Shown one piece after another: positions 18,873 to 49,227 of a stretch of DNA of 64,000 bases. Within the stretch, counting starts at the first letter, position 1. Each line of letters opens with the position of its first letter. Source of the stretch: Strigamia acuminata (Eukaryota; Arthropoda; Chilopoda; Geophilomorpha; Linotaeniidae); assembly GCA_949358305.1 (NCBI GenBank), contig OX442314.1, positions 10,099,060-10,163,059 on the forward strand. Direction: 5' to 3'. Position numbers and translations under genes: made by a program. The notes below the pieces were generated by a model. The model saw only the letters and a program-made list of their open reading frames with translations, was not told where the DNA came from and ran no database searches.

Positions 18873-21800
18873 CTACATTGTGGTTGTTACAGTTTGTTTG
18901 GAGTTTTCTGTTGTTGTTGTTGTTGTTGTTGTTGGGGTTGTTTGTTCGGGTGTTGAATCTTCGACTTTTTTGTCGGTTTTGAACTGTTCGCGGGCTTCTT
19001 TTGAATGCCGCCATTTCATTCTTCGGTTTTGGAACCAGACTTTCACCTGCAAATGGAAATTCAGCAACTGTTAGTTGATTTATAAAATTGATGTAAAACA
19101 TTAAACAATGGTGTAAAACAATGATCAACAGTGTAATACAGTGAACAATGATGTCAAACAATGATCAGCAGTGTAAAGCATTGAACAATGATTTAAAACA
19201 ATGATAAACAGTGTCAAACATTGAACAATGATGTAAAACAACGATCAATAGTGTAAAACAATGATCAACAGTGTAAAACAATGATCAACAGTGTAAAACA
19301 ATGATCAACAGTGTAAAACAATGATCAACAGTGTAAAACAATGATCAACAGTGTAAAACAATGATCAACAGTGTAAAACAATGATTAACAGTGTAAAACA
19401 ATGATTAACAGTGTAAAACAATGATTAACAGTGTAAAACAATGATTAACAGTGTAAAACAATGATTAACAGTGTAAAACAATGATTAACAGTGTAAAACA
19501 TTGAACAATGATGTCAAACAGTGATAAACAGTGTAAAACATTAAAAAATGACGTAGAAACATTGAACAAGAATGTTAAAACATTAAACAATGACGTAAAA
19601 ACATTGACAATGATGTAAAAACATTGAACAAGAATGTTAAAACATTAAACAATGACGTAAAAACATTGACAATGATGTAAAAACATTGAACAATGATGTA
19701 AAAACATTGAACAATGACGTAAAAACATTGAAAAATGATGTAAGAACATTTAACAATGATGTAAAAACATTAAAAAATGATAAAAAGTGATCAACAATGT
19801 AAAACATTGATGTAAACAATGATCTAAAACATTGATGTGAACAGTGATCTAAAACATTGATGTAAACTATGATCTAAAACATTGATGTAAACAATGATCT
19901 AAAACATTGATGTAAACAATGATCTAAAACGTTAACCAATAATTTTAAACGTTAACCAATGCTCTTAAAAATTGAACATTGACGGAAAACCGTAATCAAC
20001 AATGTAAAACATTGACCAACGGTGCAAAACATTGAACAATTGCTTTAAAACAGCGAACACCAATCGTTTTAAACCATTTCCATTAAATCTAAAACCAAAA
20101 TTGCAAAAAATTCACCAACCTGAGCATCGGTTAGGCCTAGCGTAGCTGCCAGCTGCCGCCTGTCCGGCTTCGTGATGTATTTCTGAATTTGAAACCGTTT
20201 TTCTAACCCTTTTCTCTGCAGATTGGAAAACACCGCTCGCGACCACGACCGCTTTCGCTTCCCGTTGGCCGTGTGGTGCGCGTGGTGCGCGACCGAACTC
20301 ATCGTACCCAACCGCATATCCAATTCGGAACTCGAATAAACTGAAAAACAGTCAAGAAAACAACGCAAAATTAAAATAAATCCAAATTCGTGTTTGTATC
20401 CGAGCGAGAAAGAGAAAATAAAATGAAAACAAACAGAAAATGACGAGTATTTATTTAGTTTGGCGAAATAGGCCTAAAGTGTCGTGATTTATCCGGGCGA
20501 GCACTTGGCGAGAAATGCGTTAAAATTATTTTAATGATGTTGTATATAGATCGGGATGAGCGTGTATTTGTTTAGCGGGCGCTCTTACGACTCGTTAGTC
20601 TTTGTTTGGTCATAAAGTCCAATGTAAATCAAGTGCTATTTATTTATCGAAGCTTGATTCAAAGATTGCTATTGCTGCAATGGGTTGTGGCTATTAAAAG
20701 CTTGCAGAGAGAAAAAACGGAAATGTTTCAAAGACCACCCGGTAACATGTTTTGCCAATTGCGTTCTTTTTTGTTCTGGGGGTGATTGGGTAGAAATCTG
20801 GTCGTGTTTATTCGAATTTTATTTGGATTTCGTCAAATGTTGTTTAGGAGTTCACTAAAATGTGGTGAGATTTGTATATTTCGTGGATTTCACTAAAATG
20901 TGATTAAATTTGTAAATTTCATGGATTTCACTAAAATGTGATTAAATTTGGAAAATTTCATGGATTTCACTAAAATGTGATTAAATTTGTGTATTTCATG
21001 GATTTCACTAAAATGTGATTAAATTCATAAAATTTCATGGATTTTACTAAAAAGTGATTAAATTCATAAAATTTTATTCAAACTGTTAAAGTTTCGGGGG
21101 GAAATGTCTTGGAATTCAAAAAATTAATGAAATTTCATTTAGAATGTGATTTTAATTTGATAATGTGATTTTAATTTGATAATGTGATTTTAATTTGATA
21201 ATGTGATTAAAATTCATAAAATTTCTCTAAAAATCACTTAAAATCTCATAATTGTGTGATAAAATTCGTAAAATCTTGGATGATTTTGTAGAATTTCATC
21301 AAAAAAGTGTTGTAAATCATTTTAAAAATTTATCAAATTTTTTTAAAAAAATTTATGATTCAGAATTCAGAATTTCATTGGAAAAAATTCGGAATTTCAA
21401 TGAAAAAAATTCAGAATTTCAATGGAAAAAATTCAGAATTTCAATAAAAAAAATTCAGAATTTCAATGAAAAAAATTCAGAATTTAATTAGAAAATTCAA
21501 AATTATATTTAAAAATCAAAATTATATTTAAAAATCAAAATTATATTTAAAAATCAAAATTATATTTAAAATTATCAAAATTCCTTTTTAAACCTTCAAA
21601 ATTCCATTAAAAATATCAAAATTTCATTAAAAATATCAAAATTTCATTAAAAATATCAAAATTTCATTAAAAATATCAAAATTTCATTAAAAATATCAAA
21701 ATTTCATTAAAAATAACAAAATTTCATCAAAAACATTAAAATCTCATTAAAAACTCTCAAAATGTCATTACAAAATATGAAAATTTCATGAAAAACCCAC

Positions 21801-24172
21801 AAAAGTCCATTAAAAATCCTCAAAAGTCCATTAAAAACCCTCAAAAATCCATTAAAAATCCTCAAAATCCCAAATTCTGACCGTTTCCCAACTTACTCGA
21901 ATTTGAATACGACATCAAAGGCTGTGCGCTGAATTTAGGATAAGCCGTCGGTTGATACGGATAAACGGGATACGGCTCTATGATGTGATTACAACGACAA
22001 GACGGCATCGGACAACAGCGTGAAATGCACGCGGAGCACGACAGCGAACAGATCGGCGACGGACTCGACGGCATCGGCGACTCCGATTCCGCATCTAAAA
22101 CAAAACAAAAGATTAAAAAAATTAAAAAAAAAATTCCCAAAACTAAATTTAGCATCTAAGATATTCATGAGCACTTTTATTATCGTAATTAAAGATGTTT
22201 GCCTAATGGTTTCATCAAGACAAGTGAGATGATAGGAAGGCGAGAGCGGCCATGATTCTGTCATCACATTTCGGTCCGCGGAGAGTTTGAGCTAAGTGCT
22301 CTCCTGTCATCAACTCTTTCCTTTTTATACGCTCATTTATGACCCTCTTCACATATTTATATATAAATATAGTCTCGGAACTTAATGATTTAGAAAACTT
22401 CAACTTTATGGCCACTTGAAATCTGTTTTCACTTCAAAATCAGTCAATTTTTATGTTCTCCGAGCCAGACAGGCCTTAAACGACTAAAATCCGTCTGATT
22501 TTGTGACGATGCATCGGGAATCGGACAATTCATAATAAAATATGTCCGACTCTTTTGGAAAATAAAAAAATCAGTATCAAATGCATTAGAAGCCAGACAG
22601 ATTTTAAAAAATAATTTTTTTCATTTCAAAATCCGTAAATCTCTGCAATTTGCGAGTCGGACAGGCCTTAAGCGACTAAAATCCGTCTGATTTTGTGTCG
22701 ATGCATCGGGAATCGGACAAATTGTAACAAAATCTGTTCGACTGTTTGCATTAAATTCTTCGGTACATCGAAGCGTTAAAAATCAGACAGTTTCTAACAA
22801 AATCAGTCAGACAGATTATAATTCTTCCCAAAATCTGTCTGACTCCTCTCACATTCATCCGGACTGTTTTCGACTTGATCAGAAACAACGAATCGTCGCT
22901 TCCCAATGCATTGGGAATCAGACAGCTTTCCCAAACCCTGTCCAACTCCTCTTAACAAATCCTTAAAAACGACGCAGAATAAAGTGGAAAACATTTTGTA
23001 ATTGGATCCACAAAAGCATCAGGTGTGGCAATATTAATATAGGAATAGTTTTACAATATATATATGTATATATAGCCCGAGAAAGACTAGAACCTGTGCG
23101 ACTTGTGTCCATGTTAATCACTTGGCTATCTCGAGTTTCATCCGCGACTGGAAAGGCGAAAGTGTCATCTATTGTACTGATCACGCACACGTGTTGAATG
23201 AACAATGCATTACCGCACATGGCCGCACGTGATTACAATGAAACATGACACAAATTCGGTTCCAATTTTAATTCAGGTTTCAATTTATCTCTCGCTTTCG
23301 CTGCCCTTTATACCCCTCATCACAACGGATCAAATATTTGCCACCTATCAACATCACGTGACGTTATTTAGGGTGGGGGCACCAAATGGGGATAAACATT
23401 GTTTTATCTCACCCCCAATGTCAAGATTAAACTTTTAAAACACCAATAAAACGTAAACAAACAATTTAAAACACAAATTTTAACATTTTTCTATTTTTTC
23501 ACCATTTTTCTGCGTTTTTCCACCATTTTTCTGTGTTTTTCGACCATTTTTCTGTGTTTTTCGACCATTTATCACAATTTTTCTGTGATTTTCGCCATTT
23601 TTTCACGTTTTTTCGGTTTTATATCCGCCATTTTTTTATTTTTTTTATTTTTTTTTTTAAATTTTGATTTAGAAAATGTAAAATTTTGATTTTTTCTTAC
23701 CTTTTCGAGTGGAAATGGCGTCGGACAGAATTTTGTCTATGCCGAATTTGAGATCTTTGCTGGGGATGGACGGGGCATCGTGCAGGGCCGAGCGTAGGAC
23801 GACGCACGCGGCTTTCCTGGGCGCCATTTCCCGAGCGGCGGTGCCGAGGATGTCGTCGACTCGGAAGCCGTTGGAGTGTTTTTCCATTGACGGGGAGTAG
23901 AGCATGTAGCTGCCTGCGATGTACATGTTGGGGCGATCGATTCGGTCGGATCGGGTCGGGTATTGTCGGGAGTTGGGATGTTGTGCGAGATGTGAGAGGC
24001 GATAACTAGTTGCTTCTGTTTTTAAACTCGGGCCTTTTGGTTTCCGCCCCGTTTGTGTTGAAATGCGCGTGGCGGGCTCGAAGCGCCGCCCTGTTCTGAG
24101 GGGGTCGGACGAGTCTGGCCAATCGCGTGCGAGGGGTTGGTCATGTGCGTGTTGGAGGAAGTTATCAGCCAT
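18873..24172 (-). CDS. HLX: H2.0-like homeobox transcription factor (HLX)
   Basis: Four exons on the minus strand: 24172-23701, 22094-21897, 20340-20120 and 19046-18873, all with GT-AG junctions and consistent phases (1, 1, 0), giving 354 residues. The homeodomain (about 254-313) reads KRSWSRAVFSNLQRKGLEKR... and ends WFQNRRMKWRHSKEA, with Gln50. The intron between homeodomain positions 44 and 45 (Q|V) is a classic site. Upstream, LKFGIDKILSD (141-151) matches the conserved N-terminal motif of HLX, and FRVDDILG (103-110) is eh1-like, suggesting Groucho recruitment. Exon 2 encodes a Cys/Pro/Tyr-rich linker. The tail is Thr-rich and short compared with vertebrate HLX. Known role: nuclear developmental regulator (visceral mesoderm or muscle in animals). 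Introns 1, 2 and 3 are filled with tandem arrays. Identification is firm; the 5' end and UTRs are not mapped. Confidence 0.95.
19078..20050. repeat. 20-bp tandem array filling HLX intron 3
   Basis: Unit gtgtaaaacaatgatcaaca, near-identical from about 19245 to 19500 and diverging on both sides. It occupies almost the entire intron that splits the homeobox. Minus-strand open frames within it are repeat artefacts. Confidence 0.95.
20830..21860. repeat. Series of short tandem arrays in HLX intron 2
   Basis: Successive blocks: ~38-bp units with ggatttcactaaaatgtgat (20850-21060), ~19-bp units of aatgtgattttaatttgat (21135-21205), 22-bp units with attcagaatttcaatg (21360-21480), ~19-bp units of aaaatcaaaattatattta (21490-21560) and 20-bp units of aaaaatatcaaaatttcatt (21600-21720). 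Confidence 0.85.
22455..22930. repeat. ~190-bp diverged direct repeats in HLX intron 1
   Basis: A block containing gacaggccttaaacgactaa, ccgtctgattttgtg and gatgcatcgggaatcggaca appears near 22465 and again near 22655. Weaker echoes (aatcagacag, tctgtctgactc) run to about 22930. Unlike the other arrays this unit is long and not A-tract based. Confidence 0.7.
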
Positions 24173-24264
24173 GTTTTTTTTTGGTGGGGGGTTTTTTTTC
24201 GGTAATTTTTATTGTTATTTGATTTTTTTTGCTGTTGGGGAAGATTAATGAGGTGAAATATTGT

Positions 24265-28569: not shown

Positions 28570-29095
28570 AAATGTATTTAATTTCGAATACATTTTGATA
28601 TCATTTTTTAATCACAAATCACATTTTGGATAACAAAATCACATTCTGATACACTAAATCACATTTTGGTTCACAAAAACACATTTTGGTTCACAAAAAC
28701 ACATTTTGGTTCACAAAAACACATTTTGGTTTACAAAAACACATTTTGGTTCACAAAAACACATTTTGATACATATAATCACATTTTGATACATAAAATC
28801 ACATTTTGATAAATAAAATCACACTTTGATACATAAAATCACATTTTGATACATAAAATCACACTTTGATACATAAAATCACATTTTGATACATAAAATC
28901 ACATTTTGATATACAAAATAATATTTTGATACACAAAATCACATTTTGATATACAAAATAATATTTTGATACACTAAATCACATTTTGATACACTAAATC
29001 ACATTTTGATACACTAAATCAGATTTTGATACACTAAATCACATTTTGATACACTAAATCAGATTTTGAGAGACAGAATCACATTTTAAAATAAA
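28570..29095. repeat. 20-bp tandem array before the secreted-protein cluster
   Basis: About 24 units of 20 bp, acattttgatacataaaatc and variants (acattttggttcacaaaaac in the first part). It ends about 135 bp before the TATA-like box of the first cluster gene. Confidence 0.95.
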
Positions 29096-29230: not shown

Positions 29231-29310
29231 TTTAAAAAGGAAATTTCTCGGGTCAAGAGACATTCCCCAACGTTTTTCCAACCATTTTACACGCGAAAAA
29301 GTAAGTTCGT
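29231..29310 (+). promoter_or_regulatory. TATA-like box and 5'UTR exon of cluster gene 1
   Basis: tttaaaaagg at 29231-29240 is followed about 70 bp later by a GTAAGT donor (from about 29301). A ttttcag acceptor precedes the start codon by 12 bases, so the 5'UTR is interrupted by an intron. Confidence 0.5.
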
Positions 29311-29381
29311 ACAACGTTTTTTTCTTCCTTTCTATTTTTTATTTCTATTTAAAAATTCGAAATTTTCAGTCAAAATCCAAA

Positions 29382-30755
29382 ATGGATTTCTGGACTCGCT
29401 TGCTCATCGCCGGAACTCTTTTATCCCGATTACAATTCCCAATACATTCTTTCAATTCCAACCATCGCATGCCGGGATGGTCGCCTTGGATCGGCCGAAG
29501 TTTGGTGCTCAAACACCCGTTAGTTTCACCGACACCGACCACAGATGCACAAATCGAAACCGAAACACCGCCCGCGCCAACAGTCGTCACGGGAGCGCCG
29601 TTACCGCAGTTTTCGCCCGTGTCGCATTTGGGCGTCCCCGTATACGTCCAACCGATGCAGCATCGAGTTGGGGTCATCGCACCGCCATGGTTCGTCAAGG
29701 GGCCCCCCGTCGCGACCCCGCAAGTGTCAAGGACGTCCAAGTCGTTTTTGGAAAAGGCGATTACGTTTTTGCCGAGTTTGTTGAATTTGTTCGGGTTCGG
29801 AGCCCCCGCGACCAATCCGAAATCGAAAGCGGCTTTTGACGAACTGTTTAGGATGTTCGGCATCGAGTCGAGTAGTGTCGGGGTGCTGGCAATGAATTTG
29901 CTCGTTTTTGTGGCCGAAAAGGTGAAAAGATTAAATTTTTTTTTAATTTTTAATTTAATTTTATTTATTTTGTTAGATTGCTGGTCGGTTTTTGCCGTCG
30001 GATGGGAATGATGTGGCGGAAGGTCGAGGGTTTGGTCGAAATAAATTGTTTGGTTTGAATTTACCATCGCAAGAAAAGGTGAGTTTGATATTTTGAGATT
30101 TTGTGACGTCACAAGTCGCTGGTAATGCACAATGAGGTTGTACGTAATTAAATGTTTGTTTTTAAGGAATTTAATGTCGTTTTAGAATGTTTTAAACGTT
30201 TTTTTTTGGGAATAATAAGCACTGTATGTTGATATTTTTCGCTTATTTATTGAAATTGGGTGTTTTTGGCGAATTGTGACGTCATAGGATCTCATTGGAT
30301 AGGAGTTAATCGCTGGATGGCGCGGAAGAGAGTTAAATTTTGATTCTTCAGGAATAAATAGATTTTTAATTTTCTTTTTTTAGATTTCTGCGATTACAAA
30401 TGCGCTTGCTGATAACCAATTGACTGAGAAAGTGATGCACAATATGGAGATGATGAATGGGAACAAAACCGCCTGTCAACAGAAACTCGTTTGCAAATTA
30501 TCGCCGTTTGTTAAAGGAATGCAGAGCTATCTTTTCAACCGCCATGTCAATCAACATCAGGACAATGAAATCAAGTAAAAAAAAAATTTAAATTTTAAAA
30601 AAACAATTCAAATAAGATTTATTTATTTATTTATTTTTATTTTTAGTTTATCGGGGTCCTGGACGAGTCGTTTATACAATTCATTGCCGTCGTTATTCGA
30701 TTTCAAAACGACGAGTAACAGTTGCGATTTACGATTTCCTCAGTGTATATATTAG
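29382..30755 (+). CDS. Secreted cysteine-pair protein 1 (DM4/12-like cluster)
   Basis: Four exons, 29382-29921, 29977-30078, 30384-30574 and 30647-30755, give 313 residues. The N-terminus MDFWTRLLIAGTLLSRL is signal-peptide-like. It is followed by a Pro/Thr-rich segment and a hydrophobic stretch near residues 140-180 (FLPSLLNLFGFG, GVLAMNLLVFVAE). The C-terminal part has C-x5-C at 245/251 (CQQKLVC) and C-x6-C at 304/311 (CDLRFPQC). These two pairs and a phase-2 intron between them are shared with the next four genes. The pattern resembles the arthropod DM4/12 domain (inference); unlike genes 3-5, the second cysteine is followed by Lys rather than Glu. AATAAA at about 30926. Exported or membrane-associated; function unknown. 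TGACGTCA palindromes sit in the introns at 30104 and 30277. Confidence 0.75.
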
Positions 30756-31962
30756 GAACGAAACCTAGAGAGCGAAACTTAAAATTCTGTCACGTGATGC
30801 TTAGTTTGGTTTTACGACCATTAGAGGGCGAAGTGTGGGTACCATTATTTTGTAAATAGATTTTTGTTATTTATTTATTTGTTTTATTTTATTTTATTCA
30901 TACTTTCTGTGTATTATTTTTCTGAAATAAATCATTTCAACCGAAAAAAGTGCAAATTATTTTTAAAAAATTAAAAAAAAATTAATAAAACCCAATAAGA
31001 TAATTAAGAAAAATCATTTTTAGAATAAAATAAAAATCTCATTGCATTTTTTATCATTTATATATTGGAATTTTGAATCTACTCATTGTATAACTGCACA
31101 GTACAGGGCACCATGCATGGTGCTTTAGGCCAATTCAGTTATTTCCTGTTTTCAACTGTTGTGTAATGGCTAATTGTCTTTTCACAGTTCATCTTATAAG
31201 TCATATTTTAATTACGATAAGTTGACTTATGAAGTGACAAATTTCTAACGACAAAATTTCTAATGATAAGATGCTAGGTTAGATTAGGTTTGGATTAGAC
31301 ATTTTGTCATTCGACATTTCGGCTTTGACATTCAGAAAATCCACCTTCGACCACGAAAATCGAAGAATCCGTTCATCAAAGACGGGAAAGTCGTGGGAAG
31401 AAACTAAAAAGAGAAGAAAACGGTCAAAATATGTGGCGGCGACATCGTAAAGTCGAAGAAATTCACTTACGAGAGTTGCTGCACATGTCGAGACATGAAA
31501 CATATCTAAACTTTCTTTGATTTTAGTTTAACAGTAGATGCTTATTGTTTCATGTATAATCCAACATAAACTATTAAATTAATCGTTCCAGCTAGCATGA
31601 AAATTGAAATAACAAGCATGTGCACTATTAATCTACCCAACACAAAATGATATATCTTTTTCTGAATATGGTTTTTCATCCAAATAATCGACAACTGTCA
31701 TTTCACTTTAAATGCAAGTTCAAATCATTTCCTTTTCATCTCACTGACTTCTCTCATAAAAAAGAAAAATCCTAATTACAGTGTGCACTTGACATCTTTT
31801 CACGCTCTACAACATATATCCCAAAATTAATGGATTTATTTTCTTTCTCTTATTCCTTTCTCCACAATTAACCAAGACATTATAATTGCTTATACTAAGT
31901 AAGGTCACACTTCCACCAAGTGGACACTCATTCACAATACACCTGCACACCAACAAGTAAAC
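30756..31962. other. Intergenic, no gene recognised
   Basis: AT-rich spacer between cluster genes 1 and 2. 31210-31320 contains repeated gacaaaatttcta / gacattt words of a possible small element. Nothing else is supported. Confidence 0.4.
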
Positions 31963-32765
31963 ATGAAGGTAAGATTTACAACAAAAAAACAAATTGTATG
32001 CTTAAGACCACACAATACAAGTGAAACCAAACTACTTCCGTCACATTTTCGTTTGGAATCATTCGTGCCTAAAGAAAATTTCACTTAAAAAAAAAAAAAA
32101 AAAAAAAATTAATGCATTTTGTTTCATATACAAACAGGTTTTGCTTCAGTTTTTACATCTTTTATTTCTTCTCGATGTGTGTGCTGCTTCTGCTTTCTGG
32201 AAAAGCAAACAAAATCAAACAACAAAGACTAAATCACATGACTACAACAATACCACCCATTTTTCCCAGTCAATGCTGAGAATGAAACGAAATTCTATGA
32301 TGGCTTCTAGTTTTGGGAGCAACTTGTATCCAATATTAGATGCAAGTGTGACCATTTTGAGTTTTGCTGCTTTTGCCAGTCTCTTCACGATGGCCATATC
32401 CAGATTCATCATGAATAGGCCTTCGAGTAACACTGGTGGTACTGGTGGCACTGGCTCTGGTGGTTTACTGGGCAGTATTGTATCATTGGGTCAAAGGAAA
32501 GAGGTGAATAGCACTGATAGTAATGATGACGTCATGAAGATTCTCAATAAGGCCGACAGAGCGTGCATTGAGTGGCGAAAATGCATGAAAAAGAATTTTT
32601 ACGCGAATAAAAATAAAATCAGTCCACAGGTGGGTTCATTTCGGGTGGAAGATAATTTAAAAAAATTTAAATGATCGATTTATTTCGTTTCAGGAGTGTC
32701 CGCGACGCCCACGTTCGTGTTCGCTGAACGAAGCGCTTCAACCACCGAAACCGAAAACCCGATGA
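31963..32765 (+). CDS. Secreted/membrane cysteine-pair protein 2 (cluster, divergent member)
   Basis: Exon 1 is only ATG AAG (31963-31968) followed by GTAAGA. Exons 32138-32629 and 32694-32765 complete 189 residues. Joining exon 1 to the caaacag acceptor gives MKVLLQFLHLLFLLDVCAAS, a clean signal peptide, which is why I chose this start rather than an upstream methionine in the same frame as exon 2. Residues about 75-100 are strongly hydrophobic (ILSFAAFASLFTMAI), a likely membrane segment, followed by a Gly/Thr/Ser-rich linker. The C-terminus keeps C-x5-C (145/151) and C-x6-C (168/175), but the spacing between the pairs is far shorter than in its neighbours. Divergent or shortened paralogue; function unknown. 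Confidence 0.7.
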
Positions 32766-33526
32766 TGGAAAATTGAATTTTAAAAACTTTATAATTTATT
32801 TATTTATGTGTTATTTATTAATTATTACCGTTATTTATTAAAATTGTTTCTTAAGTTTTTTAAAAAAAATGTTTTATGAGTAAATTACGAGATAAAACCG
32901 AGAGAAAACTCGTTAGGTTTAGATGGGTAGGCCCAAAACGCGGAATAAAAAACGAAATTTAATGTTTTTGATCGCTATTTCCTTTGTGTAACGAATTAAG
33001 AGATTAAACCAGCTATTAAAAACGAATTTTATTCTATTCTCGTGTGATTTTAATACGATTAAATTAGGAAATTGACCCCTAGAATCCGAGGTTTCGTGTT
33101 GACACAACTTTCGATTCGCATAAAACACGTGCAAAACTCCATTTTATTTTATTTATTTAATTTATTTAATTTCCAACATCAGAAACGTGTAATTCAATGT
33201 TTAATCATTCATAAAAAGGCTTATTTGCAAGACGGAAGGAAGTCGTAGTCAATAAATTAACTATTACTGCATACAATGAGTCATTTAGTTGTTACAGCGA
33301 ACTTGAACTCGATATAAGAGAATCAAGTGCACGAACTGGTTGATAGGAATTGATAAATCAGACGCGAAATCCGGATCGGCGACGAGTGAATGCGAAGTGG
33401 GCGTTTCCAATGGCGCAAGTTGCCAAGCAACGGCATCTAGCACATCTGGGTTCGCCTTGGTTGGCCGAGGATGACGGGCAGTGGGACGCAAGCGCATCAC
33501 CAGGTGGTGTCGGAAGCACGGAGATG
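32766..33526. other. Intergenic, no gene recognised
   Basis: AT-rich 3' flank, then a GC-richer stretch at 33360-33530 leading to the TATA-like box of gene 3. Overlapping short open frames on both strands there look non-coding. Confidence 0.4.
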
Positions 33527-33600
33527 TTATAAAGAGATCCGTACACGAATTTCTTCTCATTCTGCTCTTCCTGGCTCCCAAAAACTCATCAAACTTGAGG
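33527..33600 (+). promoter_or_regulatory. TATA box and 5'UTR exon of cluster gene 3
   Basis: ttataaag at 33527-33534. The 5'UTR exon ends cttgag followed by GTAAAT near 33600, and the intron closes with ttttag a few bases before the start codon. Confidence 0.6.
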
Positions 33601-33665
33601 TAAATTTATTTATTTATATATTTAAATTTGAATTAAATTTTTTTTGTTTGGTTTTTAGATTTATT

Positions 33666-35147
33666 ATGACATCTTACGTGAGTTTGTTGGGGTGTGTGGT
33701 TTTTGTCGTGGCGGTTGCGGTGCTGCCCGGCAGTGCACAGATGATGGAAGGGAGGAAATTCGCGACGAAAATGGAACCGATGGTGTCGAATGTGGCGGAT
33801 GCGATGCCGTCGCATTCGATGCCGATGCCGAAGCCGTCGGAGTCGATGAAAACACCGGCTTTTAGCTTCCAGACGTTGTTTAAGACGTTGTTTTCGATGT
33901 TTACGGGGAAAAATGACGGCGAATCGGCAACTAAACAGGTTTTGTGTGTCTCTTTAATGTGTTTTTTAAAGTGGTTTTTGGTGAATTTTTAGGGATTATT
34001 AGTGATTATTAGTAATTTTTAGTGATTTTAGTGTTTTTTAAGTGATTTTTAGTGAGTTTTGTTTTATTTTTAGTATGTTTCGCGTTTTTTAAATGATTTT
34101 TAGTGTTTATTTCGTAGGTTTTGTGTTTATTTTGTTGTTTTTTGTTGTAGTTTTGTCTGAAATTTGGTTTTCTTGGTTTTCTTGTGTTTTTCTTGGATTT
34201 TAAACAAAAAAATACTTTTAGTGATTTTTTTAAAAAGTGGTTAAAGTGATTTTTTAAAAAGTGATTTTAGTGATTTTTTTTAAAAAGTGATTTTAGTGAT
34301 TTTTAAAAAAAAAATAATTTTAGTGATTTTTGATGTTTATTTTGTATTTATTGTGTTTTTTTTTATTTTTACTTTAATTATTTCTATTTTTAAAAAAAAA
34401 AAAAAAAAAAAAAAAATTAACTTTCATTACTTTTTCCAGATTCTCAATCTCATCTTAAGCGTAATTGACACTTTAAAACAAAGTTTCACGAACCGGGCAA
34501 TGCAAGCGCGATCTCACGGGAGCAACAACATCGGAAGCGATGCGGTCGTAACCGGTCTCACATTTCTCAAGGTCAAATTCACTTCTAGTTACTACAACTC
34601 TCACCAAAAAAAAAAAATAAATAATCAAACCAAAAAAAAAAAACCATCTTATTATTTACATTTTAAAATTCTAACATAATAATTAATAACTATCATTTGC
34701 AGGCCTATGTCCGCAGCATGGCCGCCCACGACAACCTGTGCGTCCAAAAATTCCTCTGCGAAGCGAACAAAGAAGCGGTCGATCGAACCAACGACATCGG
34801 ACACTGGATTGGCACAGCAACAAGGTGAAGGACCCTCGAAATTGCTATTTGCAAAAATGATTTAATTCGACACCGTAGGGTGGAGACACGTTTCCAAGTT
34901 CAAAGTTAATGGCTTCACGCTCTTGTCTCTTCCGGGTTGTTGTTTATTTAATCGTTAGTGCACTTTTTACTCGCTAAAATGGTAATAATATTTTTATTTC
35001 TATTTTTTCTCGTCTAGTTCCGCCATTGGGTATTTGTTAGAACGATCCAAGGTCGCTACGGGCGACGTGATTGCGGATGCGAGTTGGAAAGGGCGACGAG
35101 GTGAAGACTGCGCCATTTTGTACGCAATGTGTTCGGACAATTTGTGA
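33666..35147 (+). CDS. Secreted cysteine-pair protein 3 (DM4/12-like cluster)
   Basis: Exons 33666-33938, 34440-34571, 34703-34824 and 35018-35147 give 218 residues. The signal peptide MTSYVSLLGCVVFVVAVAVL is followed by a Met/Pro-rich stretch, a hydrophobic FSFQTLFKTLFSMF segment and an amphipathic exon 2 (ILNLILSVIDTLKQSF). Exon 3 contains CVQKFLCEANKE (Cys148, Cys154). Exon 4 holds GYLLERSK, WKGRRGEDC and CAILYAMC (Cys207, Cys214). Exon lengths 122 (exon 3) and the phase-2 AG|T junction are the same as in gene 4, so the two are recent paralogues. The C-x5-C-E ... G-x-D-C-x6-C layout resembles DM4/12 proteins, whose function is unknown. Confidence 0.8.
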
Positions 35148-35579
35148 TGAAAAACGTCGAGAAAGCATCGAAAAAAATTGAAAAAACATCGAAAAATGAA
35201 TTTTAATCATGAAAGATTGTTTTTGAACGTTTTTATTTGATAAAAACCATTTATTTATTACTATATTTATCATTTTTTATCGATTTTTATTGATTTTTAT
35301 ACACGATTTTTGTACCCTTTTAATTTATAAATTCATTAAAATCAAATTACAAACTTACTTTTGTGTTTGTTTATTTATTTTATGAAATTATCGATTATTA
35401 TCGTAAAAAACTTGTTTTTTTGGGGGGATTTTTTATTTTATTAGTTTATGAACTGGGGATTTAAAAAATGAAAAAAAATGGCCAATAAAATTCGAGGAGT
35501 GGCCGTTTGACGTCTCTTCCTGTTAAAAACAAAGAACGCTAAGGGTCATTTAGTTCGTGACCCCTGCAAACGTGTTCTG

Positions 35580-35665
35580 TATAAGAAGGAAAGGAAAGCA
35601 AGTGCCGCATCATTTATCAGCGACATTTCATTGAGTCGCTGTGCAGCTTCATCAACACTCGGTGA
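35580..35665 (+). promoter_or_regulatory. TATA box and 5'UTR exon of cluster gene 4
   Basis: tataaga at 35580-35586. The 5'UTR ends aacactcg followed by GTGAGT near 35661, and the intron runs to tttcag ten bases before the start codon. Confidence 0.6.
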
Positions 35666-36204
35666 GTAGATTTTCAATGGTTTTCTTTATAGTTACGTAA
35701 TGGCGCTTTAAAATGGTGGCGATTTTTCGAGTTAAATTCGAGTTTTTTGGGAAATAATTTAATTTTCTTGGGAATTAAATTGTTAATTGAGGAAAAAAGG
35801 AGAAAATTGTTTTGGATTTCGAGGATTTTTGTTTACTTTTGCTTGTAAATATTAGTTCGGGAACTGAGAGACTCGAGTTGAAGTGAGGTCAGTGACCGCG
35901 ATCTTTTCTTCCGGTTACTTCCAGCTTTTCTTATGACCTTGACTTCTGGGAATGGCGAGGCCGTGGTCAATAGTGCATTAATAAAAGAAACCAGGGGTCC
36001 AGGAAATGCAAAAATAACTGATATTATACAATGATTGAGTCAATATTCGCAATGAAATATTTAGTTTTGAATTAAATTTCGATTTTTTTAAAAAAAAATT
36101 TGCATTTCCGATTTTACCATAGTTCGGGTTTTAGTGTTCGCTATGTTACTTGGATCGATCTGACGGAAAATTGTGTTTTATTTGTTATTTTCAGTTGGAA
36201 CGAC

Positions 36205-37108
36205 ATGAAATATTTAATCGCAGCATTTGTTTATGGCTTTTTATTAATCCAAGCATCGACGCAAGATGTAAGCAATGAAAATTCGGTGCAGAATCAAATG
36301 TTTTCGTCGAAGCCTTTTAGTGGCAGCACGAAAGAGAACTCGCTCGATTCTGACGAGTTAGATCCGGGATCCAAATCGCCCTTCACTTGGGGAACTCTAT
36401 GGTCGACTTTGCTCGGGTTCTTCAGAGGAAAAAGTGATGGCTCTGGAACCAAACAAGTCAGTAAAATAAAAATAACTTTGAAAAGAAATTTATTTAAATT
36501 TAAATTTAAATTTTTCAGTTAGTAAACTTCATGTTGTCAGTGTTGGACATGTTTAAACAGTATTTCATGCAACGATCAGCGCAATCCCGTGGTGCAATAG
36601 GAATTGGGCGGGTTGGAAGTGACGCAGCGAGTGCCATTTTAACTATGGTGAAGGTATGTTATCAGCGCCGCTTAGATTGGCTGCGGCGGTTATTGTCAAC
36701 AGGCTCAGCGCCGCGCAGTGATAAAAACTTAAATTAAAAATTACAAATGGCCGTTGTTTCTTTGTTTGATTTTTAGGGCTATATTAAATCATCTTCTGCT
36801 CGAGACGAGGGCTGTATGCAGCGTTATTTATGTGAAGTTAATCAAGAAGTTGTGAAGGATGCTCGTGAGATTGGTTACATAATTGGGAAAGCTGGCAGGT
36901 AAAATATATAAAATGAAACAAATGTGAAATACCAATAAAATATATCAAACTAATTTTCTATATATTTTTTTAAAAATCTAGTTCTGTTATCAGCTATTTG
37001 TTGGAACGATCACGCTCAGCTCCCTACGATGCAAATTACAATGCAAGTAGACGAGGATTGGACGGAGACAACTGTGAAACACTTAGTTATGATTGCAATG
37101 AAACTTAA
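36205..37108 (+). CDS. Secreted cysteine-pair protein 4 (DM4/12-like cluster)
   Basis: Exons 36205-36456, 36519-36653, 36777-36898 and 36982-37108 give 211 residues. Signal peptide MKYLIAAFVYGFLLIQAS, then an acidic Ser-rich stretch, SPFTWGTLWSTLLGFFRGK, an amphipathic exon 2 (LVNFMLSVLDMFKQYF), CMQRYLCEVNQE in exon 3 (Cys142, Cys148) and SYLLERSRS...GLDGDNCETLSYDC in exon 4 (Cys201, Cys208). Exon structure and phases equal those of gene 3, and all exons align residue by residue with it. Likely exported; paired cysteines suggest two disulfides. Function not known. Confidence 0.8.
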
Positions 37109-38035
37109 CTAAGACTAATACCATTTGCAAAGCTGTTTACATGACCGACAACAGTATTACTATCAACTTACCGTATCGTAAACTTACCGCACCGGGCACC
37201 GAACGACAGAGCTGGACTGGGAACAAATTTATTTCTGAACGTATCGGCAACAAAAAACACCTAAAAGTGTGACAATTGAAACGTTTTCCAAACGTTTCGG
37301 TAATTTTCTGCCGAAATGTATGCAAAACATGTCATTTGCCATCTTTTTTGGCACATTTTGGGCCTCCAATTGTGTACCCGCGCGCAATTCGAGGTCCGCA
37401 GGCTATTAGAGGCCCGCGTAGTAACTAGTAATTGACAATATACGGTATTGAAAATTAAAAATTAAATAAAAAAAAATAATAAAAATTGCATATTAGATGC
37501 CCAGGTGGCAAGGGTGCTTGATATTTTAAGCCCAGGACGCTGAAAAGTGTTAGGATGGCTCTGTCTGTCCATCGTATTTCTCGAATTTCGAAATTTGGCA
37601 GCCATTTTGTAATAGTTTAGAAATAGTCACATCAGGTCTAAGCGCTTGGGATTTACGCTAATTACGCTTTTATTTAGGTGTGCTTACAATTCGAGAAATA
37701 CGGTGTTAGATTGGTACCCTGCGCGGTAATAGAACTTTTACGGCATTTTTGATTTTGTTGTAACTATAATTTAATTTTGTTTGTTTAAATTACGTGGTCC
37801 GCTTTAAATGTTTTTAAATTTGTAAAAAACGTTTTTATTTTATTATTATTTATTCTTTTAATAAATGAAATGTGTATTGAAATGGAATGTTGAATTATTT
37901 ATTACACACGAGGAAACTTGGAATATTTATTTTAAAAAAAATTTTTTCCTTTATTTTTATTTTAATTTTTAAATTTCGGGTTCGACTCTGCGCACTGTCG
38001 GCCATGGCGACCTGTCATTATTTGTCATGCGGAAC
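37109..38035. other. Intergenic with a short inverted-end element
   Basis: cgtatttctcgaatt at about 37572 is repeated inverted as aattcgagaaatacg at about 37688, bounding a roughly 130-bp element. The rest shows nothing recognisable. Confidence 0.4.
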
Positions 38036-38132
38036 TTTATAAATAAACAGAGAAGAAATTTCCAATTGGTTTCATTTTCAGTCGCACTTGTACAAAGAGA
38101 TTTACGGGCATTTCTTTTCTGTTTCATTTGGA
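38036..38132 (+). promoter_or_regulatory. TATA box and 5'UTR exon of cluster gene 5
   Basis: tttataaata at 38036-38045. The 5'UTR ends catttgga followed by GTAAGT near 38132, and the intron ends tttag exactly at the start codon. Confidence 0.6.
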
Positions 38133-38179
38133 GTAAGTATGAAGGATTGTGACGGGAAAACTAAAAATCTAAAATTTTA

Positions 38180-38255
38180 ACCACGGGTTTTAGTAAAAGC
38201 TCGTTGTAAATGGCCGCCATTATAGAGTTGTTACTAAAACCCGCGAATTCGTATT
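38180..38255. repeat. Short inverted-end element, GGGTTTTAGTAA family, copy 1
   Basis: cgggttttagtaa near 38185 and ttactaaaacccg near 38240 are inverted, enclosing gttgtaaatggccgccatta-like sequence. A second copy lies at about 39893-39964. Confidence 0.65.
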
Positions 38256-38328
38256 TCGTATTTCCGGCACACTATTTTTTTAATTTTACTAATATTTATG
38301 TTTTTTCTGTTTGTTTCCTAATATTTAG

Positions 38329-39586
38329 ATGAGGAGGTTTTTACTCGTATTATTTATTTCATGTTTTATTTCTCAAACCGAATGTGCAGGAATGTGGGAA
38401 AGAATATCTTCAGGAATAACCGAATTTGGTACCGATTTAAATTTAAATAAAACCAAAAAAATAATACATTAACAAAATTACAAAATTAATAATTATGTAG
38501 TTCGAGGTTCCAAAAACCGCCGCGATACGACAGTGCCTTATTATAACCCAGGCTCTAATTATTACAACTACAACCGCTACTATAACAATAGAAATGACAT
38601 GTACGAGTTACAAGGCGATAGATTCGGGTAAATTATAAAACTTAAATAAACAAATAAACACAGAGAAATGCAAGAGCCTCGGTGGCTCAGTAGGTAGAGC
38701 GTGAGTCTCATAATCTCAAGGTCGTGAGTTCGATCCTCACCCGGGGCACTTACTTTTTATCTTTAATTTTTATTTTTTTAATTTTAATTATTCTAGACTA
38801 GAAAATGGAAGTCAATATTCGCCAGCAATGTCGGCATTGTCGCTTTTAGGTTTTTTATTTTTCCTCAATTTAATATCGGTAAATTTCTCTTTTTGTCTGG
38901 ATTTCAAAACCGGAAGTTGAATTTTTTAAAAAAAAATTTCAAAATAATTTTTCCAGCAAACGATGATGATGCCAATGATGGGTGGTGGCGGTGGGATGAT
39001 GGGACGACGAAAAAGGCATGTAAACGCGATTAATTACACGTCGGAGCAAGTTAATGCGTGTATACAGCGATTTATGTGCGAAGCGAACGAATACGATGCT
39101 AATGGCGATAAGTACTCGAACTTGAAGCGAGTTTTAACGCAATTAGCGAGGTGTGTATATTGAGAGACATAAAGGCAGCGCCATCCCCGAAAAAGTCTTT
39201 AGCCAATAGGGTGTCGTGACGTCACAATTCGCGCTTGGAATATGGAATGTGGAGAGATTTAGTTGCGGAGATGTATTATAGGGATGGTTGGGTACATCGG
39301 AGGTCTACGAACAATAAAAATTGTTCTTATTTAGCAAGAAATAAGATTTATGTAATTATTTCATTAAAAATTTACGCAGAGGGCGCTGTCTTTATGTCGC
39401 TCTGTGGTTGAAAGCGGAATTTGAATGTTCTAATGAGATTTTTTTAGTGTTGGATTTAGTTACGCGATACGTGGGACGAACCGAACCGAATTATTGTCCG
39501 ATTTGAGCGCCATCCAGTGGGGGATTAGTGGAAAAAAGTGCAATTTTATAGCGGAAGAAGAATGTCCCGATTCGATTTTTCTTTAA
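38329..39586 (+). CDS. Secreted/membrane cysteine-pair protein 5 (DM4/12-like cluster)
   Basis: Exons 38329-38428, 38501-38627, 38797-38878, 38957-39150 and 39448-39586 give 213 residues. Signal peptide MRRFLLVLFISCFISQTECA. Exon 2 is Tyr/Asn-rich (NYYNYNRYYNNRND). Exon 3 is hydrophobic (MSALSLLGFLFFLNLIS), probably membrane-spanning. Exon 4 starts with a Met/Gly-rich run, then GRRKRHVN, a possible furin-type cleavage site, and CIQRFMCEANE (Cys138, Cys144). Exon 5 has GISGKKC and CNFIAEEECPDSIF (Cys199, Cys207). The last phase-2 AG|T intron is shared with genes 3 and 4. Closest in the cluster to the usual DM4/12 arrangement (C-x5-CE, terminal C-P). A tRNA-Met gene sits in intron 2. Confidence 0.78.
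38676..38748 (+). tRNA. tRNA-Met (CAT), inside an intron of cluster gene 5
   Basis: 73 nt with seven-pair acceptor stem GCCTCGG/CCGGGGC, B-box gttcgatcc, anticodon CAT in the loop ctcataatc, and discriminator A. The acceptor stem fits elongator Met. It lies on the same strand as the host gene, between its second and third exons. Confidence 0.93.
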
Positions 39587-39712
39587 TTTTTTTTAGGAAT
39601 CCAAAGAAATAGTTTTTGTTGTATTTATTTATTTATTTATTTTAGAAATAAAAAAATATTTATCTGAGTTTGTTTGTTTGTTTTTGTTTAAAAAAATAAA
39701 TAAAAAATTATT

Positions 39713-39796
39713 TGTCAGAAGTGGGATTCGAACCCACGCCTGGAAAACCAGACTGCGACCTGAACGCAGCGCCTTAGACCACTCGGCCATCCTGAC
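39713..39796 (-). tRNA. tRNA-Leu (CAG)
   Basis: Minus strand, 84 nt, begins GTCAGGATGGCCGAGTGG and ends CTTCTGAC-A. It has the long variable arm expected of Leu and anticodon CAG (gttCAGgt). It lies about 130 bp after cluster gene 5, convergent with it. Confidence 0.95.
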
Positions 39797-39892
39797 ACAC
39801 CAAACATAGATCTTTATTCATGTTTCAATTAAAAAATTAGAAATAAAGAAAAGAAAAATTAAGAAAAAGTATAATTTGTTGGGACAGCGACG

Positions 39893-39964
39893 CAGGTTTT
39901 AGTAATAACCCGCTTTAAATCGTATTATGGTTGGCCATTGCAGCGGGGTGTTACTAAAACCCGT
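39893..39964. repeat. Short inverted-end element, GGGTTTTAGTAA family, copy 2
   Basis: ggttttagtaataacccg at the left and ttactaaaacccg at the right, enclosing ggttggccattgc. Same ends and a similar core to the element at 38180-38255. Confidence 0.65.
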
Positions 39965-40452: not shown

Positions 40453-40469
40453 GCCTCCGTGGCGCAATT

Positions 40470-40509
<40 letters not shown>

Positions 40510-40526
40510 GAGTCCACCTGGGGGCG
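40453..40526 (+). tRNA. tRNA-Asn (GTT)
   Basis: 74 nt, starts GCCTCCGTGGCGCAATTGG, anticodon GTT (ctGTTaac), T-arm ggttcgagtcc, and ends TGGGGGCG. The acceptor stem pairs with a wobble. Third tRNA within 1.9 kb. Confidence 0.95.
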
Positions 40527-43869: not shown

Positions 43870-44352
43870 GTTTATTCACCCGCCAATTTCTCGTATGAGC
43901 ATCGTGCGAGCTTTAGTTTATTTTTTTTTAAAATTTTTAGATAATTTTGTTTACACAGTTATAAAAAAAAATAAAAATAAAAAATAATTCTAAAATAATT
44001 TCGTTCTCTCATTTCTCTTTATTTTCAACCAAGGGTTAAGAATTAAGATCCAGGGTCAAATCTGCACTCCACCAACATCGCAAAAAAAAATCGAGTTTCA
44101 AATTAAGAATTGATAAAATGTGACGTCACACACTTTTAAACCAATTGAATGTCTCGCCGTCGACGTTGTCCGTGGAGCTGGAAACATTACGTGGCTTCAA
44201 CATGTTTCGATTTTTAATCGCCCGTCAATTTGTGCCGTGTCACTGAAACATTTCTATCATTCATGAAACTAAAAAAGTAAACCAAAGCACCACCGATTCT
44301 CACCCAACCTAAAATTCCCCTTGTTTATTTAATTATTTCCTAGGGAAGCAGA
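43870..44352. promoter_or_regulatory. Shared divergent promoter of UBR7 and SEL1L
   Basis: Only 483 bp separate the two start codons. The interval holds a full CRE/ATF palindrome TGACGTCA at 44121-44128, a CCAAT at 44141, and tttcctag ending a 5'UTR intron just upstream of the SEL1L start. An ER-stress element needs CCAAT-N9-CCACG; here CCAAT is followed after nine bases by CGCCG, so it is not a match. Confidence 0.6.

Positions 44353-49227
<4,875 letters not shown>

What the first reader, a model, noticed from the sequence alone, without database searches (positions are those of the whole stretch)
29382..39586. Five-gene tandem cluster of secreted, cysteine-paired proteins
Five consecutive plus-strand genes encode signal-peptide proteins of 189-313 residues. 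All end with the same layout: C-x5-C, a variable middle, then C-x6/7-C. Genes 1, 3, 4 and 5 share a phase-2 intron between the pairs; genes 3 and 4 have identical 122-bp third exons. Sequence identity is otherwise very low (gene 2 lost most of the middle), so the family diverges quickly while keeping its frame. The layout resembles arthropod DM4/12 proteins, which lack a known function. Such a pattern suggests a secreted multigene system (immune, reproductive, cuticular or venom-like roles are all open).
Basis: partly seen in the sequence, partly recalled or inferred. Interest (0 to 1): 0.8.

Follow-up and report, generated by a model that had tools for sequence, protein, structure and literature searches.

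The report
Arthropod DM4/12 secreted-protein gene cluster
Five neighbouring arthropod genes make small, apparently secreted proteins with four paired cysteines; two of them clearly and two more probably belong to a known but functionally unexplained arthropod family (DM4/12), so the cluster is real but of a known kind.

Summary
The five gene models hold up: GT..AG introns, open frames of 189-313 aa, and a C-x5-C ... C-x6/7-C tail in all five. Genes 3 and 4 pass Pfam's DM4_12 cut-off; gene 5 scores below it; genes 1 and 2 do not match. The host genome shows six more DM4_12-like loci. A first-pair-exon profile built only from those six ranks genes 5, 4, 1 and 3 as numbers 1-4 of 6433 ORFs in 264 kb, at modest E-values (0.02-0.4); gene 2 ranks 186. 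The phase-2 intron between the cysteine pairs is a family mark: 9 of 11 genes have it. Gene 2 is linked only by place and layout. "Identical" 122-bp exons are equal in length; 58 of 122 bases match. Fast divergence is not shown: synonymous sites are saturated. The host is an arthropod, probably not a winged insect. Best reading: an old tandem DM4/12 array, new members of a known kind. A matrix or cuticle role is the likeliest guess but rests on thin literature; no expression, orthologue or fold data were available.

The parts
29382..30755 (+). Gene 1, 313 aa; exons 29382-29921, 29977-30078, 30384-30574, 30647-30755; intron phases 0,0,2. Probable divergent DM4_12 relative with a long N-terminal half.
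   Evidence: model; no DM4_12 match (only TruD at 12.7 bits, cut-off 27); rank 3 of 6433 (E 0.2) with a profile from other loci, but rank 25 (E 13) when only gene 1 was left out, and its last exon was not found by the second-pair profile (ranks 764 and 2375); pairwise scores against L008 and L009 reached by 1 of 300 shuffles each, against the other seven proteins by 22 to 193 of 300.
31963..32766 (+). Gene 2, 189 aa; exons 31963-31968, 32138-32629, 32694-32766; phases 0,0. Same cysteine layout but only 16 residues between pairs; hydrophobic segment then Gly/Thr run. Membership unproven.
   Evidence: no DM4_12; only Brr6_like_C_C at 9.7 bits, cut-off 25; rank 186; 0 of 300 plain shuffles against gene 5 and L012; 32 and 30 of 1000 locally shuffled controls reach those scores.
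33666..35148 (+). Gene 3, 218 aa; exons 33666-33938, 34440-34571, 34703-34824, 35018-35148; phases 0,0,2. DM4_12 at residues 134-214.
   Evidence: 23.8 bits, cut-off 22.
36205..37108 (+). Gene 4, 211 aa; exons 36205-36456, 36519-36653, 36777-36898, 36982-37108; phases 0,0,2. DM4_12 at residues 124-208. Nearest relative of gene 3.
   Evidence: 26.5 bits; 36% identity to gene 3.
38329..39586 (+). Gene 5, 213 aa; exons 38329-38428, 38501-38627, 38797-38878, 38957-39150, 39448-39586; phases 1,2,0,2. Hydrophobic segment, Gly run and RRKR site (residue 120) ahead of the cysteine domain.
   Evidence: 15.5 bits, below cut-off; rank 1 of 6433 with the first-pair profile from other loci, but rank 809 with the second-pair profile.
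30575..30646 (+). Phase-2 intron between the two cysteine pairs of gene 1
34825..35017 (+). Phase-2 intron between the cysteine pairs of gene 3
36899..36981 (+). Phase-2 intron between the cysteine pairs of gene 4
39151..39447 (+). Phase-2 intron between the cysteine pairs of gene 5
33528..33562 (+). TATA box plus initiator (TCATTC) ahead of gene 3; inferred 5'UTR intron 33600-33658
   Evidence: pattern chosen after these upstream sequences had been read.
35580..35615 (+). TATA box plus initiator (TCATTT) ahead of gene 4; inferred 5'UTR intron 35662-36194
   Evidence: same caution.
38038..38077 (+). TATA box plus initiator (TCATTT) ahead of gene 5; inferred 5'UTR intron 38133-38328
   Evidence: same caution.
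29301..29369 (+). Inferred 5'UTR intron of gene 1
   Evidence: GTAAGT donor, TTTTCAG acceptor; no TATA plus initiator was found ahead of genes 1 and 2.

Best explanation
This is a tandem array of DM4/12-family genes (Pfam PF07841), old rather than recent. Each gene makes a protein that enters the secretory route by an N-terminal hydrophobic signal. The C-terminal four-cysteine domain is spread over two exons joined across a conserved phase-2 intron. Inferred mechanism: C-x5-C and C-x6/7-C lie on two helices held together by two disulphides, giving a small stable extracellular hairpin. In gene 5, and in some family members elsewhere in this genome, a hydrophobic segment followed by a basic, furin-like site suggests that the domain is cut free of an N-terminal pro-part. 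The most likely place of action is the apical extracellular matrix or cuticle of ectodermal epithelia, where the domain would act as a structural or assembly factor. Shown: gene structure, family membership of genes 3 and 4, intron conservation. Supported but weaker: genes 5 and 1. Inferred: one promoter per gene, disulphide pairing, cleavage, site of action. Gene 2's membership is open.
For: Models and layout. Pfam DM4_12 over cut-off for genes 3 and 4, and for 4 of the 6 other loci, the four that were joined and scanned (L008 32.4, L011 38.6, L012 26.7, L009 23.1 bits). A profile of the first-pair exon trained on the six other loci ranks genes 5, 4, 1, 3 first to fourth of 6433 ORFs (E 0.022, 0.071, 0.2, 0.42). 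The phase-2 intron between the pairs is in 9 of 11 genes: genes 1, 3, 4, 5 and L008, L010, L011, L012, L013 (read by eye); gene 2 has phase 0 and L009 has no intron there. The gap is 52 in five of ten genes measured. Codon-position conservation in the shared exon of genes 3/4 is 22/25/9 of 40. L010/L011 show dN 0.10, dS 2.18 over 56 codons. Basic sites follow a hydrophobic segment in gene 5, L008 (only GKR), L009 and L012, 4 of 9 proteins scanned. Literature, thin: in a honeybee larva study DM4/12 is one of the InterPro groups in a table of genes that change over time, beside cuticle and chitin-binding groups but also peptidases, transporters and heat-shock proteins (PMC9764631, passages read; which rows were marked significant was not visible in the text). 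Planthopper Osiris17 and 24 carry DM4_12, described as a function-unknown motif with four conserved cysteines (PMC12825958, passages read).
Against: No expression data. No relative outside this genome was found (289 candidates, none at E up to 0.001; 7995 scored, none at E up to 1), though I do not know how many arthropods that database holds. The second-pair exon profile does not find gene 1 (ranks 764 and 2375) or gene 5 (809 and 1866) when they are left out, and finds gene 4 only at rank 9, 28 or 463 depending on what else is left out. Gene 1 drops to rank 25 (E 13) on the first-pair profile when it alone is left out. Genes 1, 3 and 4 have no furin-type site, and gene 2's RMKR lies early in the chain, before the hydrophobic segment, so cleavage cannot be general. 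A cleaved signal peptide plus a true membrane span would put the cysteines on the cytosolic side, so the hydrophobic segment cannot simply be a membrane anchor if the disulphides form. The cuticle role rests on one bee table and on the Osiris link.
Confidence: 0.45

Rival explanations
1. A fast-evolving secreted effector family (immune or venom-like): the cysteine frame is kept while the surface changes under an arms race.
For: Secretion-like N-termini, paired cysteines, tandem array, low identity between most members (genes 1, 2 and 5 are 17-19% identical to gene 3).
Against: Rate could not be told from age: dS is saturated for genes 3/4. The one pair with an estimate, L010/L011, points to purifying selection (dN 0.10, dS 2.18 over 56 codons, dS itself near saturation). 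The domain keeps its gap length across distant genes.
Confidence: 0.15
2. A reproductive (seminal or egg-coat) family in tandem.
For: Only the general fit: secreted, duplicated, divergent.
Against: Nothing in this genome's sequence points to the gonad; no such report showed up in the listings and passages I saw.
Confidence: 0.1
3. The array is mixed: genes 1, 3, 4, 5 are DM4/12, while gene 2 is an unrelated or lineage-specific gene that sits among them and has a similar cysteine layout by chance or convergence. (Not exclusive of the other readings.)
For: Gene 2 has no DM4_12 match, ranks 186 with the family profile, has a phase-0 last intron and a 16-residue gap; locally shuffled controls reach its best scores 32 and 30 times in 1000.
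Against: Same strand, position between family members, a cysteine layout that shuffles give 2 times in 20000, and the same order of hydrophobic segment, Gly run and cysteines as gene 5 (alignment; 0 of 300 plain shuffles).
Confidence: 0.45
4. Wrong or dead gene models; the exon chains were chosen to fit the layout.
For: No transcript data; gene 2's first exon is only two codons.
Against: Independent Pfam and profile matches, codon-position conservation, the same intron in unlinked loci, TATA plus initiator ahead of genes 3-5 (3 of the 7 such sites in the window, pattern chosen afterwards).
Confidence: 0.05

Closest known systems
DM4/DM12 family, Pfam PF07841 / InterPro IPR006631 (30 genes in the 'CGh' class of a fly wing RNAi screen, PMC8664486, one passage read)
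   Same: Hydrophobic N-terminus, C-terminal four-cysteine domain; genes 3 and 4 over Pfam's cut-off; same domain and intron in unlinked loci of this genome.
   Different: Genes 1 and 2 do not match the Pfam model and gene 5 is below cut-off; gene 2 lacks most of the middle. The family's function is described as unknown, so nothing can be transferred.
Osiris family (DUF1676, PF07898), two planthopper members of which also carry DM4_12 (PMC12825958, passages read)
   Same: Secreted or membrane-linked multigene insect family; shares DM4_12 in two planthopper proteins.
   Different: No DUF1676 match in the five proteins, and none found in this genome (0 candidates, no positive control of an insect).
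Chitin_bind_4 (R&R) cuticle proteins, PF00379
   Same: Secreted arthropod multigene family (recalled) in tandem clusters; 54 matched places in this genome.
   Different: No Chitin_bind_4 match in the five proteins.
Twin CxnC helical hairpins (CHCH, alpha-hairpinin); recalled, from no call
   Same: Two cysteine pairs with fixed spacing, likely on two helices.
   Different: Spacings, cell compartment and sequence differ; a resemblance of layout only.

Membership tests
DM4/12 (PF07841), genes 3 and 4 | Score over the curated cut-off (22 bits) | tested here: met
   23.8 and 26.5 bits.
DM4/12 (PF07841), genes 1, 2 and 5 | Score over the curated cut-off (22 bits) | tested here: not met
   Gene 5 15.5 bits, genes 1 and 2 no match at E up to 10. 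They are therefore not filed under Pfam's criterion; genes 5 and 1 are called probable relatives on other grounds.
DM4/12 (PF07841) | Four conserved cysteines near the C-terminus (PMC12825958, passage read) | tested here: met
   All five, C-x5-C and C-x6/7-C; gene 2 with a gap of 16 against 47-56 in the other nine measured.
DM4/12 (PF07841) | Recognised by a profile of other family genes of the same genome | tested here: inconclusive
   All four of genes 1, 3, 4, 5 left out: first-pair exon, genes 5, 4, 1, 3 rank 1-4 of 6433, gene 2 rank 186; second-pair exon, gene 3 rank 1, gene 4 rank 9, genes 1 and 5 ranks 764 and 809.
DM4/12 (PF07841) | Phase-2 intron between the pairs (a feature of this genome's members, not of the published definition) | tested here: met
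   Genes 1, 3, 4, 5 yes; gene 2 no (phase 0); 5 of 6 other loci yes, L009 no.
DM4/12 (PF07841) | Secretion signal | tested here: inconclusive
   Hydropathy only: clear in genes 2-5, weaker in gene 1; no predictor on hand.
DM4/12 (PF07841) | Fold of the domain | not tested
No solved relative in the PDB by sequence.
Osiris (PF07898) | DUF1676 domain | tested here: not met
   No match in the five proteins.
R&R cuticle proteins (PF00379) | Chitin_bind_4 domain | tested here: not met
   No match in the five proteins.

The most novel reading that the evidence does not exclude
In an arthropod with no detectable Osiris (DUF1676) genes, DM4/12 genes form a proprotein family: an N-terminal hydrophobic part is cut off at a furin-type site and releases a two-disulphide hairpin that helps assemble the apical matrix. 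The tandem array would then be a pre-Osiris counterpart of the Osiris cluster, with gene 2 as a shortened derivative of the domain.
Probability: 0.08. Interest if true: 0.55.

Novelty: new member of a known kind. Interest (0 to 1): 0.25.

Why it matters
DM4/12 is a sizeable insect family (30 genes in one class of a fly screen, PMC8664486, passage read) described as of unknown function. The finding adds a clear tandem array and six further loci in one genome, shows a shared phase-2 intron that can help to find diverged members that Pfam misses (gene 1), and points to a basic cleavage site in part of the family that can be tested. It does not by itself say what the family does.

Tried and rejected
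Searching 5.8 billion proteins with gene 3 and with the five-protein alignment: nothing. Solved structures: nothing relevant (two SIN3A chains at E about 0.6, taken as chance). The first own-genome search with PF07841 at E up to 0.001 found nothing; the six loci came from the same search at E up to 10, so they rest on their later Pfam scores (four of six), and on the tool's own note for L013 (28.6 bits with its neighbours) and the likeness to L011 for L010. Own-genome searches with genes 1, 2, 3 and 5 found only the cluster itself. Looking for further members within 100 kb on either side: none beyond genes 1, 3, 4, 5 by the first-pair profile (next best E 1.0); one weak second-pair match at window-relative 75272-75361, minus strand, not followed. 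Plain shuffles made gene 2 look related to gene 5 and L012; locally shuffled controls removed most of that, so I do not claim it. dN/dS for genes 3/4: saturated. Naming the organism: the mitochondrial contig gives trnI-cox1-cox2-cox3, with no tRNA found between cox1 and cox2; with Chitin_bind_4 in 54 places, no DUF1676 candidate and one 7tm_6 match just at the cut-off out of 26 candidates this suggests an arthropod that is not a winged insect. The searches are exon-wise and lossy and had no insect as positive control, and the taxonomic meaning of these marks is recalled, so this is a lead only. Papers: six fly gene numbers that I recalled as DM4/12 genes gave a listing of 17 papers, none of which by its title or abstract dealt with the family; I opened none of them.
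Full report
What is there. Each ends in C-x5-C, a gap, and C-x6-C or C-x7-C. Shuffling each protein after residue 22, 20000 times, gave the layout 1, 2, 0, 3 and 0 times, so it is not an accident of composition. That the reading frame is real is best shown by the shared 122-bp exon of genes 3 and 4: 58 of 122 bases match, with 22, 25 and 9 of 40 matches at codon positions 1, 2 and 3. The exons are equal in length, not identical in sequence.

Family. Pfam DM4_12 (PF07841) is matched over its cut-off of 22 bits by genes 3 (23.8) and 4 (26.5), below it by gene 5 (15.5), and not by genes 1 and 2, whose only matches are chance-level ones to TruD and Brr6_like_C_C. A search of the own genome with the same family found nothing at E up to 0.001 and six places outside the window at E up to 10, three of them marked over the cut-off. 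Four of these six loci were read as spliced genes and scanned, and all four pass the cut-off (L008 32.4, L011 38.6, L012 26.7, L009 23.1 bits). I then built a profile of the first-pair exon from the six loci alone and ran it over 6433 stop-to-stop ORFs of at least 25 residues in the window plus 100 kb on each side. Genes 5, 4, 1 and 3 came first to fourth (E 0.022, 0.071, 0.2, 0.42); gene 2 came 186th. No single E-value is strong, but four of four in the top four places is. The same test with the second-pair exon found gene 3 first and gene 4 ninth, but genes 1 and 5 only at ranks 764 and 809. When only gene 1 was withheld it fell to rank 25, E 13, on the first-pair profile; when genes 3 and 4 were withheld together, gene 4's last exon fell to rank 463. 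So genes 3 and 4 are members, gene 5 very probably, gene 1 probably.

Intron. Genes 1, 3, 4 and 5 share a phase-2 intron between the cysteine pairs. L008, L010, L011, L012 and L013 have one in the same place and phase, as I read from their sequence; L009 has none there, and gene 2's last intron is phase 0. That makes 9 of 11 genes. The gap between pairs is 52 in genes 1, 3, 4, L011 and L013, 53 in L012, 54 in gene 5, 56 in L008, 47 in L009 and 16 in gene 2.

Gene 2. It lies in line with the others, has the layout, and shows the order hydrophobic segment, Gly-rich run, cysteines that gene 5 has. Plain shuffles put its similarity to gene 5 and L012 beyond all 300 controls; against the other seven proteins it is ordinary (28 to 173 of 300). 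Shuffling within 15-residue stretches, which keeps the hydrophobic and glycine runs, lets 32 and 30 of 1000 controls do as well. Its membership is therefore open.

Promoters. A TATA box followed by an initiator occurs 5 times on the plus strand and 2 times on the minus strand of the window; three of the plus sites lie just ahead of genes 3, 4 and 5, each followed by a likely 5'UTR intron that ends 0 to 10 bases before the ATG; none was found ahead of genes 1 and 2, though gene 1 also has a likely 5'UTR intron. I chose the pattern after reading those regions, so this is description, not a test. It suggests one promoter per gene for genes 3-5.

Selection and age. Between genes 3 and 4 synonymous sites are saturated (pS 0.83) with dN 0.72, so the pair is old and a fast rate cannot be inferred. 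The only pair with an estimate, L010/L011 on other contigs or places, has dN 0.10 and dS 2.18 over 56 codons of the first-pair exon: purifying selection, with dS itself near saturation. This speaks against a general arms race in the family, without testing the five genes.

Mechanism. Inference: secretory entry, two disulphides that pin two helices, extracellular action. Gene 5, L009 and L012 carry a furin-type site (RRKR, RKRR, RRKR) and L008 a GKR, each after a hydrophobic segment and ahead of the cysteine domain (4 of 9 proteins scanned, and GKR was added to the pattern after L008 had been read). That suggests a pro-part removed by cleavage in a subset; genes 1, 3 and 4 have no such site. 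A role in apical matrix or cuticle is the best single guess. The support is thin: DM4/12 appears in a table of InterPro groups that change over time in bee larvae together with cuticle and chitin-binding groups, but also with peptidases, transporters and heat-shock proteins (PMC9764631, passages read), and two planthopper Osiris proteins carry the domain (PMC12825958, passages read). A fly wing RNAi paper counts 30 DM4/12 genes in its CGh class (PMC8664486, one passage read). In my paper searches I saw no paper devoted to the family's function; the library lacks most subscription journals.

Host. The genome has 54 Chitin_bind_4 places, so it is an arthropod (the family's restriction to arthropods is recalled). 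DUF1676 (Osiris) gave no candidate, the insect odorant-receptor family one match at the cut-off, and the mitochondrial order is trnI-cox1-cox2-cox3 with no tRNA found between cox1 and cox2. I read this as probably not a winged insect, without more precision.

Verdict. The new points are modest: the intron as a family mark, gene 1 as a probable member that Pfam misses, the doubtful place of gene 2, and the partial presence of a cleavage site.

Noticed in passing
38676-38749: A complete tRNA-Met (CAT) gene lies on the same strand inside intron 2 of gene 5 (38628-38796); tRNA-Leu (39712-39797, minus) and tRNA-Asn (40453-40526) follow closely.
   Followed up: no
38183-38224 and 39923-39964: Two 42-nt stretches that are 74% complementary, carrying TTACTAAAACCCG-like ends; the first lies in the inferred 5'UTR intron of gene 5. 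They may be a small dispersed inverted-repeat element.
   Followed up: no
28616-29087: About 24 copies of a 20-bp tandem repeat (AAATCACATTTTGATACACA) just upstream of gene 1; the window holds many other arrays with periods near 20, 30 and 40 bp.
   Followed up: no
20069-20473 and 23669-24208: Minus-strand homeodomain ORF (Pfam 39.8 bits); by recall of its sequence an H2.0/HLX-like gene, perhaps with an upstream exon at 23.7-24.2 kb (no Pfam match there).
   Followed up: no
44344-44898: Open frame with a signal-like start, an acidic middle and a hydrophobic Cys/Phe-rich end; no Pfam match; a TATA plus initiator site lies 1.1 kb upstream at 43251.
   Followed up: no
L010 (C5:9176730) and L011 (C1:35341909): Two DM4/12 genes on different contigs are alike (61% and 73% identity in two exons) with low dN on the first-pair exon (0.10 against dS 2.18), unlike the diverged cluster genes.
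   Followed up: partly
L022, window-relative 75272-75361, minus strand: Weak match (E 5.6e-4 among 6433 ORFs) to the second-pair exon profile, CLIFFPHCIYSIG; could be a chance match or an exon of another family gene.
   Followed up: no
L049 (C157:3248-4588): The mitochondrial contig has cox2 followed directly by cox3, without atp8/atp6 between them, and trnI ahead of cox1: a rearranged order.
   Followed up: partly
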